Positions 937 to 48,680 of a stretch of DNA of 52,335 nt are shown here, piece by piece. A program made the position numbers and the translations under genes. This stretch comes from a virus, in IMG/VR virus record IMGVR_UViG_3300036851_000202, positions 1-52,335 of that record; one strand, written 5' to 3'. The notes beneath the pieces were generated by a model. It saw nothing but the letters and a program-made list of their open reading frames with translations. It was not told where the DNA came from and searched no databases. Position 1 is the stretch's first letter. Every line of letters begins with the position of its first letter.

Positions 937-1338
937 ATGGATGCTTATTGGCAGGCTGCCCTAGCGAACCGCAGCGGCGACAAGATTCGGGATGCTCAGT
1001 TGCGGCGCAAGGCGGCGAAGTCCAAGCCGAAGCCGCCCAAGAGGACGCGCCAGAAGCCGCCAGCGTTCGCCGGGACTTACCGCGAGTACATCGACTCGCC
1101 GCAATGGGCGAAGAAAAAACGGAAGGCCAAGAAGTTCTACGGTGGTAAGTGCTGCCGATGCGGAGCCACGCGAGATTTGCAGGTCCACCATCGCCACTAC
1201 CGGACGCTGTTCCGGGAGTCGATGAAAGACCTTGAAGTCCTTTGTGGAGGATGCCACGCAAACGAACACGAGGGGACGAAGTTTGGTGCAATGGACCCCA
1301 TGACGGCCGAGTTTGTAGCGATGGCACGCGGCATGTAA
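937..1338 (+). CDS. HNH endonuclease
   Basis: 133 residues. A basic N-terminal half leads into an HNH fold: CCRC at residues 72-75, VHHRHY with H84/H85, and CGGCH at 103-107, the zinc-bound beta-beta-alpha metal arrangement of this family. It is likely a free-standing homing-type nuclease. It is the only rightward gene inside the long leftward early operon, has its own promoter-like sequence and GGAG site, and its stop abuts the stop of the convergent replication gene at 1339. Position and orientation suggest an independent insertion. Confidence 0.8.
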   Translation: MDAYWQAALANRSGDKIRDAQLRRKAAKSKPKPPKRTRQKPPAFAGTYREYIDSPQWAKKKRKAKKFYGGKCCRCGATRDLQVHHRHYRTLFRESMKDLEVLCGGCHANEHEGTKFGAMDPMTAEFVAMARGM

Positions 1339-2118
1339 TCATCGAGCACCTCCGGCCAGGACGGCGCCGATCGGGAGGGTGGTCGCCGCCAGAACGTCCT
1401 CAAAGCCCGCCCGGCGGCCGCGTAGGACGGTTCGCAGCCAGCCCGCCGGGTTGTCGATCTTGCCGCCAGTCACGCGGAAGGACTCGATGGCTTGCTCGAG
1501 GTCGTCATCGCTGAGGTCTCGAGACCCGTAGAGCATCGCGACCTTGGCAACCAGCTTGAAACTATCCAGGTTGCCGCAATCAACCCAAACTGCCAGCCTT
1601 TCCGCCATCGCGCGCGCCCGCGTATCCTTCAAGAAAGAGAACTCTCTAGCGCCATTACCATTAACCGAAGGTGAAGCAGAAGATGATGATGAAGATGAAG
1701 GGGTTGGACGGCTGTTCAACCTTCCGCCAGCCTGAAGGTTGGAACTAAGGTTATCCTTCCCGGTCAATGCAGGGTTGCCGCCAAGGTGGCCCCCGGCTGC
1801 TCGAGCTGCTCGTGTCGCCTCATCGGCAACCATCCGTCTCGAGAATACCTCCCCGGCATCCGTCCGGCTGAAAACCTTGGCGCCCTCGAGCTCCGCCAGC
1901 CATGAGGCTGTCTGCCGCGGTGTGGCGCCAACCATCCGGCTAAGGGCTTGCGTCTCGAGGGGGTTCCCCTTGACGTTTAGATGCCCATACGGCTCGCCCT
2001 GGTGCATGATGCAGAGCATGTCCATCCACAGGCCACGGGCGCCGACGGAACAGGTCCGCAACGCAGTATCCCGCAGCCAATCGCCGGGGTAAAACTGAAA
2101 TGAAGGTCGTTTTGCCAC
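1339..2118 (-). CDS. DUF1376-like phage replication protein
   Basis: 259 residues from a GTG start. The N-terminal 90 residues (FQFYPGDWLRDTALR, GLWMDMLC) match the DUF1376/YdaU-type winged-helix domain of phage replication initiation proteins. A serine-rich linker (about 140-150) separates it from a basic C-terminal domain. Such proteins bind the phage origin and recruit the host helicase. No phage helicase or DNA polymerase is recognisable elsewhere, so replication probably relies on host enzymes recruited here. No obvious iteron cluster was seen in the gene. Confidence 0.7.
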   Translation of the reverse strand: MAKRPSFQFYPGDWLRDTALRTCSVGARGLWMDMLCIMHQGEPYGHLNVKGNPLETQALSRMVGATPRQTASWLAELEGAKVFSRTDAGEVFSRRMVADEATRAARAAGGHLGGNPALTGKDNLSSNLQAGGRLNSRPTPSSSSSSSASPSVNGNGAREFSFLKDTRARAMAERLAVWVDCGNLDSFKLVAKVAMLYGSRDLSDDDLEQAIESFRVTGGKIDNPAGWLRTVLRGRRAGFEDVLAATTLPIGAVLAGGAR

Positions 2119-11297: not shown

Positions 11298-11351
11298 CAA
11301 GCCCGGCGTGGCTTCGCATATCCATCCCGTCCGTTTTTGCCGAGAAAACGT

Positions 11352-12446
11352 ATGGATGCGAATCGAGAGAATGCGAATCAAGGGCCGTTTTCGGGGCGCG
11401 CTTCGGGGCGCTTGCGAGTGCTGATTCGCAGCAAGGGGCCGGGCCAGCCGTTCCATTTGTACTACGTCGATCCTGCCACTGGGAAGGAACGAACGAAGCG
11501 AACAGCCGCCATGACGCGCGACGACGCGCAGCGCGCGGCCGGCGTCTGGGAGCAAGAGCTGGTCGCCTACCGCGGCGAGCGCGACGACGGATGGAAGCTG
11601 TTTCGTGACAAGTTCAGGGATGAGCATGTAGCCTCACTATCGGACAAGACGCGGGCTGGGTACGGCACGGCGCTGAACCATTACGAGCGGCTGATGAATC
11701 CGCACACGCTGGCGGACCTGACGCCGGCCGCCCTCTCTCAATTCCAAGCGAAGTTGGTTGCCGAGAAGCGACCAGTGACCAGCATCGGCAACTACCTGAC
11801 GCACATGCGGACGGCTCTAAACTTCGCGGCCATGATCGGCATGATCGACAAGGCCCCGCGAATCAAGATGCCGAAACAGAATCGGCGGTCGTTCATGCGC
11901 GGGCGTCCGGTGACTGCCGCCGAGTACCGCCGGATGCTCCAAGCCGCGCCGCCAGATCTCCGCCGGCTAATGGAACTGCTTTGGCTTTCCGGCCTGCGCC
12001 TTAGCGAGGGACTGAAGATCTCCTGGGACTCACCGCCGATCGTGGCGAAGCTGGACGCCAAGCCCTACCCGCTGCTGATGTACTTCGCGGAAGGCCACAA
12101 GGCACGCCGGGACGACGCCGTACCGATGACGCCAGACCTCGCGGCTTGGTTGCGTAGGACGCCCGCCAAGGCCCGCGTGGGGTTCGTGGCCCCTGTGTCG
12201 CTAGAAACCCAGCCCCGCGTCTCTGAGGCTATCTCCGAAATCGGACGGGCCGCTGGCGTGGTTGTGAGCGATGACGGCAAGGCGGCATCGGCCCATGATC
12301 TGCGCCGGGCGTTCGGCACGCGATGGGCCCACAAGGTGATGCCGGCAGTCCTCCGCGTCTTGATGCGACACGGGGACATTCAGACCACGCTTAAATACTA
12401 CGTCGGAATCACCGCGACCGATGCCGGCGACGCGCTTTGGAAGTGA
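11352..12446 (+). CDS. int: tyrosine recombinase (integrase)
   Basis: 364 residues from the ATG at 11352 (an in-frame TTG at 11337 is possible). The SAM-like N-terminal core-binding domain spans about 80-170 and the catalytic domain about 185-360. Active-site residues are visible: R216 (SGLRLSE), K250, H315-x-x-R318 (AHDLRR), H340 (MRHGDIQTT) and the nucleophile Y349 or Y350. It would integrate the phage at a host tRNA-Lys gene through the adjacent candidate attP. Its 3' end overlaps a convergent small gene by 38 bases. Confidence 0.92.
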   Translation: MDANRENANQGPFSGRASGRLRVLIRSKGPGQPFHLYYVDPATGKERTKRTAAMTRDDAQRAAGVWEQELVAYRGERDDGWKLFRDKFRDEHVASLSDKTRAGYGTALNHYERLMNPHTLADLTPAALSQFQAKLVAEKRPVTSIGNYLTHMRTALNFAAMIGMIDKAPRIKMPKQNRRSFMRGRPVTAAEYRRMLQAAPPDLRRLMELLWLSGLRLSEGLKISWDSPPIVAKLDAKPYPLLMYFAEGHKARRDDAVPMTPDLAAWLRRTPAKARVGFVAPVSLETQPRVSEAISEIGRAAGVVVSDDGKAASAHDLRRAFGTRWAHKVMPAVLRVLMRHGDIQTTLKYYVGITATDAGDALWK

Positions 12447-24844: not shown

Positions 24845-27034
24845 TTACGATGAGCCGCCGTCCGCATGGACGCCGCCACGGTACTCTTGGAAGTTCACGC
24901 CAACGTCCGAGTAGCCGCGCATCTGAACGCCAAGCACGTTGAATTCGGCGTCGGCCGTTTCGACGGTCGGCATCACGTTGCCGTTGAGGGCGGCGATCGC
25001 GATGACCGGCAGGACGTTCGGATCGGCCAGCAGCCACCAGGCAGTCGAGGTATTGCCCGTGTACGTGGAATTGCTGATGTACGGCGAGCTTTCCAGGCGG
25101 AACCGCCCGCGGAACACGTTGATGTTGGACATGCCGGCCGAAGCGCCGGAAACGATGACCGATTGCGGGTCCAGCAAGGCGCTGGCCGTCGCCTTGAGCG
25201 CCGACGGGACAAGGACAATCGCCGCCTCCATCCCCAGAGGAGTGCCGTCAGGGTTGGTCTGGTTGAGGAAAATCGTCTCGGTTGCAGCCAATCCGGCGAG
25301 CGTCATATCCGCAACGCCGGTATTGATGTTGCTATTGCCGGACGCGAAGAACGACGTCGAGACACCGGACAGGAATTCTGTCCAGAAGATGTGATTTAAG
25401 AGCTTCATCGCACCGTTTCCGAGCTTCATCGGAACGTCGGTCAGGGCTCCGGTGTCATCGTTGATGATGTCCTGCCGCGTAATGGCCAGCATCTTCGCGT
25501 AGGTATCGGCCTTGTTGGTGTAGCTCAGCTCGCCGAGCGTGCCGTGCTTGATTTCGCCGTCGCCGGCAACCTGCTCATACCGCACGGAATCCGTCAGGCT
25601 GACGGTGGTAGCGGTCTTGAAGTCGCGGACGTTCTGAATCTTCGCGATCCGCAGCGGCGTCTGATCTACGGCATTCCAGCCGCGGAATACGAACTTGTTG
25701 GCGACGTTGGAAACGATGTCGGAAATGTCGATCGTGCTGAAGCCCGCAGCGTGGATGTGCTGCCGCGGGGCAGTCATGCGGAAGGCCGCCCGCTGAACCT
25801 CCAGCGTCACGTCCATGTTTCCGTCGTTGAAGCCGTTGGCCTGGGCGCAGAGCAAGAAGAGCTGCTTGAGCCCGATTCGCCCGCGGAACCGCTTGTGCGC
25901 GGCATCCAGCACCTTCTCGTCAAACTGCTTCTCGATATCGGGCAGGTTGCCGGCCTGGCAGAGTGCCGCCTCCAGCACGTCGTTGGTGAGCTGCCCGTCG
26001 CGCTTCGAGGAGAACACGCCGACGCCCGGCGCCATCGTCGTAGCTTCGAGCAATTCCAGACGGAACTTGTCAACGCCCCATTTGCCGTCGATGCCCTGCT
26101 GGGCCAGTTCCTTGATGGCCTTGATTTCATACGGCCGCTTGTCGCAGGCGTTGAGGGCAATATCGGTGATCGCGTCAATGCGGTCGGTTTCGGCCTGCTT
26201 GGCATCAATGCCCTCGTCGAGCTTGACCCGCTTTTTCGGCGGAGTCACCAACTGACTCGTCGTGAAGTTGGCTTCGATCTTCTCTTGCTGCTCGGTCGTG
26301 GCGTTTTCCACGTCGATCCCCATGCTTTCGGCCCATGCTTTGACTTCGGCTTTCATAACTGTCTCCTTGGTAGAAGCGGCCGAAGCCGCGATGGTGACTT
26401 GGGTATCGTCGTCAGCGCCGTGAGAAACGAATGCAAGCCCCTTGAGCGTGCCGACGCGGGTCACGTACATGGGGCCGTCAAAGGTCTGGCCGTTGGCCTC
26501 GACCGTCTTGCCGGCCTTGACCTCCTGAACCTTCTCGGGATTGACTTCAAGACTCGATTGCCACACGTAGCCGTCGCGGGCGCTGTCCACCACTTCATCG
26601 CGGGCGGCGGTAGCGGCGGAGGCGGTTCCGTTGGCGACGAGAGATTTGCCGTCGTTTGCTACGGCGAAATTGCCGACACGCTTGGTGCGGTCGTGGTCGA
26701 GATTGGCGACAAGCACTTTGCTGGGCTTCAGGCCCGCAAGATCGATGACCACTGGCAAATCCCAGCCTTCGATGTCGAGTTTGCCGCCCGTGTAGAATGT
26801 GCTGGTGAACTTGGCCGGACCTTTGCTGGCGCCTTCGCCTTCCGCCGCGCTGATTGTCACGGGTGCGGAGAGGGCGATGATCGCTGGTCGTTTGCCTTTC
26901 GCCATGGCTTGCTCCTTCAATTTGGCCTGACACATGACGACGGCTTGCCCTTGGTCGTGACCTTCGTCCATGACCATCGGCACACAGCGCCGCATGTAGT
27001 CCTCGCGCGATTCGCCGGGCTTAGGAGTGGGCAT
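24845..27034 (-). CDS. fused prohead protease and major capsid protein
   Basis: 729 residues. The opening PKPGESREDYMRRCVPMVMD is the short motif at the head of many such proteins. Residues about 50-230 form the protease part (FTSTFYTGGKLDIEG, LDHDRTKRVG with a histidine in the expected place); about 230-330 is a charged scaffold-like delta region; 380-729 is a capsid domain (RDFKTATTVSLTDSVRYEQV, RQDIINDDTG, SNINVFRGRF). This protease-scaffold-capsid fusion is known in Mu-like and related phages; maturation would cleave the polyprotein. Confidence 0.8.
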   Translation of the reverse strand: MPTPKPGESREDYMRRCVPMVMDEGHDQGQAVVMCQAKLKEQAMAKGKRPAIIALSAPVTISAAEGEGASKGPAKFTSTFYTGGKLDIEGWDLPVVIDLAGLKPSKVLVANLDHDRTKRVGNFAVANDGKSLVANGTASAATAARDEVVDSARDGYVWQSSLEVNPEKVQEVKAGKTVEANGQTFDGPMYVTRVGTLKGLAFVSHGADDDTQVTIAASAASTKETVMKAEVKAWAESMGIDVENATTEQQEKIEANFTTSQLVTPPKKRVKLDEGIDAKQAETDRIDAITDIALNACDKRPYEIKAIKELAQQGIDGKWGVDKFRLELLEATTMAPGVGVFSSKRDGQLTNDVLEAALCQAGNLPDIEKQFDEKVLDAAHKRFRGRIGLKQLFLLCAQANGFNDGNMDVTLEVQRAAFRMTAPRQHIHAAGFSTIDISDIVSNVANKFVFRGWNAVDQTPLRIAKIQNVRDFKTATTVSLTDSVRYEQVAGDGEIKHGTLGELSYTNKADTYAKMLAITRQDIINDDTGALTDVPMKLGNGAMKLLNHIFWTEFLSGVSTSFFASGNSNINTGVADMTLAGLAATETIFLNQTNPDGTPLGMEAAIVLVPSALKATASALLDPQSVIVSGASAGMSNINVFRGRFRLESSPYISNSTYTGNTSTAWWLLADPNVLPVIAIAALNGNVMPTVETADAEFNVLGVQMRGYSDVGVNFQEYRGGVHADGGSS

Positions 27035-46120: not shown

Positions 46121-46212
46121 AACTTCTGGATGGAATCGAACCACCGACAAGTCCTGTCGCTACCAGGACACCACGGGAGCGACCCGCTGCTCTGCCACTG
46201 AGCTACAGAAGC
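46121..46212 (-). tRNA. abnormal tRNA with an extra hairpin (anticodon uncertain)
   Basis: Reads as a tRNA on the minus strand: acceptor GCTTCTG / CAGAAGT (last pair G-U, discriminator T, no encoded CCA), D-arm GCTC-AGTGGCA-GAGC and T-arm GGTGG-TTCGATT-CCATC. Between them are two hairpins, not one: GCGGG.CCCGT with a 5-base loop (7 bases if the top pair opens) and GTCCTG-GTAGCGA-CAGGAC. Either the second is a long variable arm or it is the anticodon arm (loop with T33, R37, A38, anticodon AGC) and the first is an insertion. Identity cannot be settled by eye. Confidence 0.55.
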
Positions 46213-47398: not shown

Positions 47399-47971
47399 AT
47401 GACGCCTGAAGCGATTAAAGACCGCGCCAAGCGAATCATCGTGGAGTTGGTTCGCCAAGCCGGCGGTGTATTCTACAACAAGACCAACCTTTACAAGGCG
47501 TTCTGGCGGGCGCATCTCGCCTACGCCGAAACCAATCCCGGCTATCTATCCGCTTGGCCCATCGTGAAGATGCCGGAGGGGCCGGGGATCGACCGATTCA
47601 ACCGCCTCTGCGGCGAGATGCTGGAGGACGGTTGGCTGGACCTCCGCGAGCAGCAATCCGGTCCTCACACGGGAATGGTCTTTGACTTGGGCGAAACTCC
47701 GCCCCCCTGTGCGCTGGACAAGAACGCCGTGGCGGCAATCAGGGCTGGAGTAGCAGTAGCCGGCAAGTGGGCCGCCACCGTGAGCGATGAATCCCACCGC
47801 GATTCGCGAGCGTGGAACCAGGCGGCAATGGGCAAGGAGCTGGACGTTTACAGCGACTTGCTATCCAACGAAGAACTGGCCGAATTGGACAAGGGCCTAG
47901 AGTCGCTTGCTGCGGCGGCAGGATATGCACTATCGGATCGAACGAAAATGAGCGTCAACCCAGTGGGTTAG
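47399..47971 (+). CDS. Panacea/DUF4065-like protein (antitoxin-type fold, tentative)
   Basis: 190 residues from the ATG at 47399. IIVELVRQAGGVFYNKTNLY, KAFWRAHLAYAETNPG and the surface-type AWPIVKMPEGPG resemble the SocA/Panacea layout in which a Lxxxxxxah...GP(x) pair occurs. The C-terminal helices (LSNEELAELDKGLESLAAAA) are extra. A toxin partner is not visible. The 3' end overlaps the convergent 47930-48307 gene. Confidence 0.4.
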   Translation: MTPEAIKDRAKRIIVELVRQAGGVFYNKTNLYKAFWRAHLAYAETNPGYLSAWPIVKMPEGPGIDRFNRLCGEMLEDGWLDLREQQSGPHTGMVFDLGETPPPCALDKNAVAAIRAGVAVAGKWAATVSDESHRDSRAWNQAAMGKELDVYSDLLSNEELAELDKGLESLAAAAGYALSDRTKMSVNPVG

Positions 47972-48334: not shown

Positions 48335-48431
48335 TGCGGCGGACGGGACTCGAACCCGTATGAGGGCCTTGCTAAGGGGACCACTCGCCCGATCCCAAAT
48401 CGGGTGCGGCTACCAGTTTCGCCACCGCCGC
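48335..48431 (-). tRNA. leucine-type class II tRNA carrying a UGG (proline) anticodon
   Basis: 97 bases on the minus strand: acceptor GCGGCGG / CCGCCGC, discriminator A, D-arm GGCGAAACTGGTAGCC as in tRNA-Leu, anticodon stem CCCGA / TCGGG with loop TTTGGGA, long variable arm with CCTT-AGC-AAGG, T-arm ACGGG-TTCGAGT-CCCGT. The loop centre is TGG, which reads CCA proline codons. A single base change from TAG, a leucine anticodon, would explain it. Leucyl-tRNA synthetase ignores the anticodon in well-studied bacteria and needs A73, present here, so leucine charging is plausible. Confidence 0.75.
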
Positions 48432-48680
48432 GCTTTCTCATTCACAACGTGCATCCTGTTGCACTTCTTCTTGGTGCGGGTCGCGGCGGCCTAGCCGCGG
48501 CCCCACCAACGGGCCAACTAGACGGATTGTAGGGCCTTCCACCACCCAATTCAATGGCCGTCCTGATATCTGTCGGCCGGACCACGCCGCGGATGAACTC
48601 CGGCCGGCTCTTGACCTCCCACGTGGTGCTGATAAAGTTTATCAGTGGAGTTGACATGAATCCGTGTTAGGAGAGTGACC
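48432..48680. promoter_or_regulatory. regulatory interval with operator-like palindrome for the winged-helix gene
   Basis: A perfect palindrome CTGATAAAGTTTATCAG (48629-48645) overlaps a possible -10 (TAAAGT, 48633-48638), with TTGACC 16 bases upstream; AGGAGA precedes the ATG at 48681. A regulator binding here could switch that gene, perhaps by autoregulation. A 71-aa minus-strand frame in this interval lacks a ribosome site and is not accepted. Confidence 0.5.

What the first reader, a model, noticed from the sequence alone, without database searches (positions are those of the whole stretch)
48335..48431. Leucine-type tRNA with a proline (UGG) anticodon
The cloverleaf is a textbook class II tRNA-Leu (A73, D-arm GGCGAAACTGGTAGCC, long variable arm), but the loop TTTGGGA puts TGG at positions 34-36. 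One base (A35 to G) separates it from UAG. If LeuRS charges it, the phage could place leucine at CCA codons in phage or host proteins. Alternatively it may be a dead or edited gene.
Basis: partly seen in the sequence, partly recalled or inferred. Interest (0 to 1): 0.82.

Follow-up and report, generated by a model that had tools for sequence, protein, structure and literature searches.

The report
Mobile leucine tRNA reading proline codons
A bacterial virus carries an intact leucine-type transfer RNA whose decoding triplet reads proline codons, and the same odd tRNA turns out to be cargo of IS1595-family transposons in several bacterial phyla and phages, so the mismatch is conserved rather than an error and could make cells insert the wrong amino acid.

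Summary
On the minus strand, 48431-48335, lies a complete 7/5 cloverleaf (Rfam 51.8 bits) with a class II leucine body (A73, A14, A15-U48, G18G19, A20a, C2-G71, 28-nt variable arm) and a UGG (Pro) anticodon. It is not a one-off or an assembly error: scans found 13 further Leu-body, NGG-anticodon tRNAs in phage contigs and five bacterial phyla. Twelve of the 13 are tied to IS1595-family transposons (transposase and/or terminal inverted repeats). In five elements the tRNA sits between inverted repeats bounded by perfect 8-bp target duplications. A scan by inverted repeat alone again recovered UGG class II tRNAs. Hosts keep their own tRNA-Pro(UGG) and tRNA-Leu. The window copy has no recognisable transposase or inverted repeat, so it looks like a freed or domesticated copy. 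Most likely it is a mobile missense-suppressor tRNA, charged by LeuRS and placing leucine at some CCA codons; charging and effect are inferred, not shown. Closest known kin are allo-tRNAs (serine-type, 8/4 or 9/3 stems, odd anticodons), one of which was reported overlapping a transposon gene. The Leu-type 7/5 version inside IS1595 elements was not found in the held literature.

The parts
48335..48431 (-). tRNA gene: class II leucine-type body with UGG (proline) anticodon; CCA end not encoded
   Evidence: Rfam RF00005 51.8 bits; cloverleaf fit with every stem paired
48395..48397 (-). anticodon U34 G35 G36 (T48397, G48396, G48395), preceded by U33 and followed by G37
   Evidence: sequence and stem-defined 7-nt loop TTTGGGA
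48360..48387 (-). variable arm, 28 nt, longer than the 13-17 nt of ordinary bacterial tRNA-Leu
   Evidence: host tRNA-Leu for comparison
48335..48335 (-). discriminator base A73
48471..48509 (-). hairpin upstream of the tRNA, loop containing CTAGG; several relatives have comparable hairpins with CCTTAGG or CCTAGG loops
   Evidence: fold -27.4 kcal/mol, z -1.75, so only modestly above shuffles; relatives
48526..48554 (-). sigma-70-like promoter candidate reading towards the tRNA (TTGAAT-17-TACAAT)
   Evidence: consensus match only

Best explanation
This is an intact, mobile missense-suppressor tRNA: a tRNA-Leu(UAG)-like molecule whose anticodon has become UGG. It belongs to a family of Leu-bodied, Pro-anticodon class II tRNAs that spread as cargo of IS1595-family transposons; the phage carries a copy without recognisable transposon ends. 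Shown: the cloverleaf, the leucine identity elements, the conserved Pro anticodon across unrelated loci, and the position inside transposons in relatives. Inferred: host LeuRS charges it (LeuRS does not need the anticodon in E. coli); Leu-tRNA(UGG) then competes with the host tRNA-Pro(UGG) at CCA (and perhaps CCG) codons and inserts leucine at some of them; and this mistranslation, perhaps only when the element or phage is expressed, is what is selected.
For: Cloverleaf and score. All leucine determinants listed for E. coli (A73, A15-U48, G18G19, A20a, U54:A58; anticodon not needed: PMC9976931) and the anti-SerRS pair C2-G71 are present. Thirteen further Leu-body NGG tRNAs. Twelve of the 13 linked to IS1595 transposase or TIR, against 0 of 22 control tRNA loci from the same genomes (Fisher 2e-8). 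TIR plus exact 8-bp TSD around the tRNA in L005, L014, L032, L089 and L154. A TIR-first scan finds UGG class II tRNAs again. Strong covariation. Hosts keep their own tRNA-Leu and, in four of five genomes, a matched tRNA-Pro(UGG), so the element's tRNA is an extra, conflicting decoder.
Against: No aminoacylation or proteome data. The window phage does not avoid CCA (18% of Pro codons, the highest A-ending share among its four-codon boxes), and transposases of tRNA-bearing elements are CCA-rich (21/61 versus 3/39), which sits badly with strong mistranslation. Some relatives have C1-G72 (L004, L020, L154), a proline-type end, and L076, L086, L089 and L164 have A37. The window copy has neither transposase nor TIR, so its transposon origin rests on family resemblance only.
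Confidence: 0.5

Rival explanations
1. The tRNA does not act in translation. It is an element RNA (structural, regulatory or toxin-antitoxin-like) that uses the tRNA fold and the conserved UGG loop for stability, processing or partner binding.
For: The review of allo-tRNAs reports transposon-linked, untranslatable tRNA-like RNAs and a toxin-antitoxin guess (PMC7609411). A complete 1.15-kb element (L154) holds only the tRNA and a Panacea-antitoxin gene. UGG also occurs in a Ser-like body (L200), so the loop rather than the amino acid could be the conserved part. CCA is not avoided.
Against: All canonical tRNA contacts (U8, A14, G18G19, U33, TTCRA) and a 7/5 fold are kept, several copies encode CCA, and the anticodon varies only within NGG in the Leu-body set (which was selected for NGG, so this last point is weak outside the TIR-first scan).
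Confidence: 0.22
2. It is a normal proline donor: ProRS charges it through G35, G36 and A73, so it simply adds CCA decoding capacity.
For: G35, G36 and A73 are proline determinants (PMC9976931). Three relatives have C1-G72. Window and transposase CCA use is not low.
Against: The window tRNA has G1-C72 instead of G72 and A15-U48 instead of the G15-C48 Levitt pair, plus a class II arm. Leucine determinants are complete, so LeuRS should at least compete.
Confidence: 0.12
3. A neutral relic: a copy left by a transposon, still folded but without use to this phage.
For: No transposase, no TIR, no close relatives of the locus; CCA not encoded.
Against: Perfect stems, a promoter-like site and an upstream hairpin as in relatives; encoded CCA is also absent from tRNA-Leu genes of the Phycisphaeraceae genome examined, so its absence need not be decay.
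Confidence: 0.12
4. A counter-defence or lysogeny aid: a tRNA that replaces a host tRNA cut by a tRNA nuclease or lost when the prophage integrates (tRNA-dependent lysogeny).
For: Phage tRNAs are known to support lysogeny this way and are proposed to counter tRNA-degrading defence (PMC10865867). The window encodes a tyrosine integrase.
Against: The integrase (11337-12446) is about 36 kb from the tRNA on this linear contig, and a Leu-charged tRNA would not replace tRNA-Pro. Relatives travel in transposons.
Confidence: 0.04

Closest known systems
Allo-tRNAs (Mukai et al. 2017, reviewed in PMC7609411)
   Same: Class II tRNAs whose anticodon does not match the body's amino acid; environmental and Acidobacterial; one case reported overlapping a transposon-related gene. 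Two IS1595 loci here (L221, L224) carry UAU tRNAs that look like this group.
   Different: Allo-tRNAs are serine-type (G73) with 8/4 or 9/3 stems. This one is leucine-type (A73) with canonical 7/5 stems and UGG, and its relatives lie inside defined IS1595 elements.
Ordinary bacterial tRNA-Leu(UAG)
   Same: D-arm, A73, class II arm, acceptor end; one base in the anticodon away.
   Different: G35 instead of A35, C22 instead of A22, variable arm 28 nt instead of 13-17.
Engineered tRNA-Ser(UGG) Pro-to-Ser mistranslators in yeast (PMC6827378) and fly (PMC11373654)
   Same: Class II body whose synthetase ignores the anticodon, given a proline UGG anticodon.
   Different: Man-made, eukaryotic and serine; here natural, bacterial, mobile and leucine-type.
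IS1595 (ISXO2) family transposons
   Same: Relatives' elements have the IS1595 transposase (PF12762, PF12760), inverted repeats and 8-bp target duplications.
   Different: A tRNA as recurrent cargo was not found described in the held literature; the window copy lacks the transposon.
Nematode class II tRNAs with Gly or Ile anticodons charged with leucine (from memory, not looked up)
   Same: Leu-chargeable class II body with a foreign anticodon.
   Different: Eukaryotic and not known to me as mobile-element cargo.

Membership tests
Bacterial tRNA-Leu by identity | A73, A14, A15-U48, G18G19, A20a, U54:A58 | tested here: met
   read from the cloverleaf; determinant list from PMC9976931
Bacterial tRNA-Leu by identity | C2-G71 pair (against SerRS) and long variable arm | tested here: met
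   PMC9976931
Bacterial tRNA-Leu by identity | Leucine anticodon with A35 | tested here: not met
   anticodon is UGG; not an identity element for E. coli LeuRS
Bacterial tRNA-Leu by identity | Charged with leucine | not testable with these tools
   needs an aminoacylation assay
Bacterial tRNA-Pro | G35, G36, A73 | tested here: met
Bacterial tRNA-Pro | G72, G15-C48, short variable loop | tested here: not met
   C72, A15-U48 and a 28-nt arm
Allo-tRNA | 8/4 or 9/3 acceptor/T branch and serine identity (G73) | tested here: not met
   7/5 branch and A73
Allo-tRNA | Class II body with mismatched anticodon | tested here: met
IS1595-borne Leu-body NGG tRNA family (described here) | Leu D-arm, A73, class II arm, NGG anticodon | tested here: met
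IS1595-borne Leu-body NGG tRNA family (described here) | Lies inside IS1595 TIRs or next to IS1595 transposase | tested here: not met
   true for 12 of 13 relatives, not for the window
tRNA-dependent lysogeny system | Phage tRNA complements the host tRNA disrupted at attB | not tested
   attachment site unknown; integrase is far from the tRNA

The most novel reading that the evidence does not exclude
IS1595-type transposons carry mistranslating tRNAs as an addiction or conflict device: a Leu- or Ser-charged tRNA(UGG) acts as an RNA toxin by corrupting proline codons, restrained by co-carried genes such as the Panacea-antitoxin protein found alone with the tRNA in the 1.15-kb L154 element. Phages pick up such tRNAs.
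Probability: 0.15. Interest if true: 0.95.

Novelty: new variant of a known kind. Interest (0 to 1): 0.74.

Why it matters
It gives a mobile, cross-phylum carrier for genetic-code-breaking tRNAs. Allo-tRNAs with odd anticodons had no settled function or vehicle; finding a leucine-type, proline-reading version inside defined IS1595 transposons, and UAU allo-type tRNAs next to IS1595 transposases, makes the question testable. If charged with leucine, such elements would spread mistranslation between bacteria and phages. Such tRNAs are named tRNA-Pro or missed altogether by a standard finder.

Tried and rejected
Group I introns and truncated tRNA halves: most of the 32 genome hits to the first pattern were intron-split tRNA-Leu genes or clostridial 5' halves and were removed by cloverleaf score (true members score 21 or more, the best false one 18.7). 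Panacea in the window: the neighbour 47399-47971 looked like one by eye, but Pfam and BLASTP gave nothing. Transposon remnant in the window: no TIR beyond chance, no transposase by profile search of all six frames. Recoding of the transposase (CCA at leucine positions): no clear case of a CCA codon at a position that is leucine in the other transposases of the small alignment, so no support. Depletion of CCA in the phage: not seen. Close relatives of the window locus: none by terminase (two at 34% identity), none by the neighbour protein. Upstream CCTTAGG/CTAGG hairpins recur but were not tested further. Pattern scans of 396 Acidobacteriota and 392 Planctomycetota genomes found only the two already-known copies, which shows rarity.

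Full report
Observation. Minus-strand bases 48431-48335 form a complete tRNA: RF00005 at 51.8 bits, missed by ARAGORN. All 20 stem pairs form; the loop TTTGGGA gives U33, UGG at 34-36 and G37. The record is an IMG/VR virus contig with portal, head protease/major head and tape-measure genes. Its terminase has distant relatives (25-33% identity) in 33 of 294 Planctomycetota genomes, which suggests but does not prove a planctomycete host; no other phylum was searched as a control.

Identity. Leucine determinants in E. coli are A73, A15-U48, G18G19, A20a and the D-T loop contacts, not the anticodon (PMC9976931). All are present, as is C2-G71, an antideterminant against SerRS. Proline determinants G72 and G15-C48 are absent. 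Against a mixed set of bacterial tRNAs the nearest isotype is Leu. Differences from host tRNA-Leu are G35, C22 and a 28-nt variable arm; the tRNA-Leu genes of genomes that carry relatives have A22 and 13-17 nt.

It is a family. A pattern for a Leu D-arm plus UGG and G37 gave true members in three viral contigs and six bacterial genomes (one of them, L037, is cut by a contig end). An AGG form (L043) came. A scan for a Leu D-arm with a variable arm of 26 or more and any anticodon, with the window counted in, gave seven full cloverleafs: six NGG and one ordinary UAA. Fourteen members, compared over their 69-position core without the variable arm, pair in 98.9% of stem cells, with 16 of 20 pairs changed on both sides, so selection keeps the fold while the sequence drifts. 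The D-arm and anticodon were part of the search; A73 and the class II arm were not required by the first search and are nevertheless always present.

It is transposon cargo. In ten of the 13 other loci an IS1595 transposase (PF12762, PF12760) or its remnant lies within about 1.6 kb of the tRNA. Two more (L003, L004) have an exact TIR instead. The thirteenth (L037) is truncated. TIRs CGGAAGTATGTACTTTACGCAA (or close variants) with exact 8-bp target duplications enclose the tRNA in L005 (CAGATTTG), L014 (TTCTAATA), L032 (TTAAATAA), L089 (AATTTTTT) and L154 (TACCGTAG). Where only one TIR is visible next to the tRNA, the tRNA is on its inner side. Twenty-two ordinary tRNA loci from the same genomes have no such transposase and no TIR with two or fewer mismatches. 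Searching by TIR alone recovered UGG class II tRNAs again (L143/L144/L151/L159 type, L154, L164), so the anticodon is not produced by the search; the other tRNAs near a TIR-like match were ordinary class I genes outside or far from it. Among 30 IS1595 transposase loci of Acidobacteriota, four besides L014 have class II tRNAs: UGG in a Ser-like body (L200), UGC in a Leu-like body (L198), and UAU 90-92 nt tRNAs with G73 (L221, L224) that resemble allo-tRNAs. Five other viral IS1595 transposases have none, so the cargo is common in one branch, not universal.

The window copy. No transposase by profile search of six frames and no TIR above chance. It shares the body, the C22 variant (with L003, L005 and L014), the extra-long arm (as in L003, L007, L043) and an upstream hairpin with a CTAGG loop. 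I infer a freed or domesticated copy.

How it works. LeuRS should charge it; U34 reads CCA and perhaps CCG; a normal tRNA-Pro(UGG) was found in four of the five bacterial genomes checked, so only part of the CCA codons would become leucine. None of this is measured. Against strong mistranslation, the phage uses CCA freely and tRNA-bearing transposases are rich in CCA (genomic codon bias was not controlled for). A non-translational role therefore stays open; the L154 element, which has only a Panacea-antitoxin gene and the tRNA, makes a toxin-antitoxin-like role worth testing.

Known work. Allo-tRNAs are serine-type class II tRNAs with 8/4 or 9/3 stems and 35 anticodons; a UAU pseudogene overlapping a transposon-related gene led to a guess of transposon or toxin-antitoxin association (PMC7609411; the primary paper is not held). 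No held paper found links IS1595 to tRNA cargo or reports a Leu-type 7/5 UGG tRNA; absence from this library is not proof of absence. I rate it a new variant of a known kind.

Noticed in passing
window 46121-46212 (-): Second irregular tRNA (Rfam 43.8 bits): U73, 92 nt, long variable hairpin, anticodon arm two bases short (5-nt loop or 4-bp stem), called Ala(CGC) by ARAGORN.
   Followed up: partly
window 24953-25039 (+): ARAGORN tRNA-Leu(gag) call lies antisense in the head protease/major head gene and is not supported by Rfam; a false positive.
   Followed up: yes
L071, L072, L082, L085, L088 (and cousins L067, L070, L077, L087, L094): Phage tRNA-like genes with near-perfect leucine acceptor, D and T arms and long variable region but no proper anticodon stem (AGTCAGGTGGCGGAATTGGTAGACGC...).
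   Followed up: no
L154 701-1849: Complete 1.15-kb element with TIRs and TSD TACCGTAG holding only a SocA/Panacea antitoxin gene and a UGG class II tRNA.
   Followed up: partly
L121 7897-7969 (+): Class I tRNA with GCU (Ser) anticodon and a body that looks Arg-like by eye, just upstream of the AGG Leu-body tRNA of L043.
   Followed up: no
L164 240-313 (-): tRNA with an 8-nt anticodon loop (TTTCGTAA) beside the UGG class II tRNA inside an element end.
   Followed up: no
L183 about 1460-1538 (-): Leu-body tRNA with a four-base anticodon call (ccaa) at the end of an 11-tRNA array in an Acidobacterium genome.
   Followed up: no
L221 1005-1190 (-), L224 1006-1177 (-): Tandem irregular tRNAs (UAU allo-like plus an Ala-anticodon tRNA) about 300 bp from IS1595 transposases in two Acidobacteriota genomes.
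   Followed up: partly
L030, L033 and other clostridial loci: Repeated truncated tRNA-Leu 5' halves (GATTTGGGCAGCGTTACTACAGTGG) in tandem near tRNA-Leu(UAG).
   Followed up: no
L120 about 1184-1256 (-): 73-nt tRNA-like sequence with a 9-bp end stem directly upstream of the L003 tRNA.
   Followed up: no
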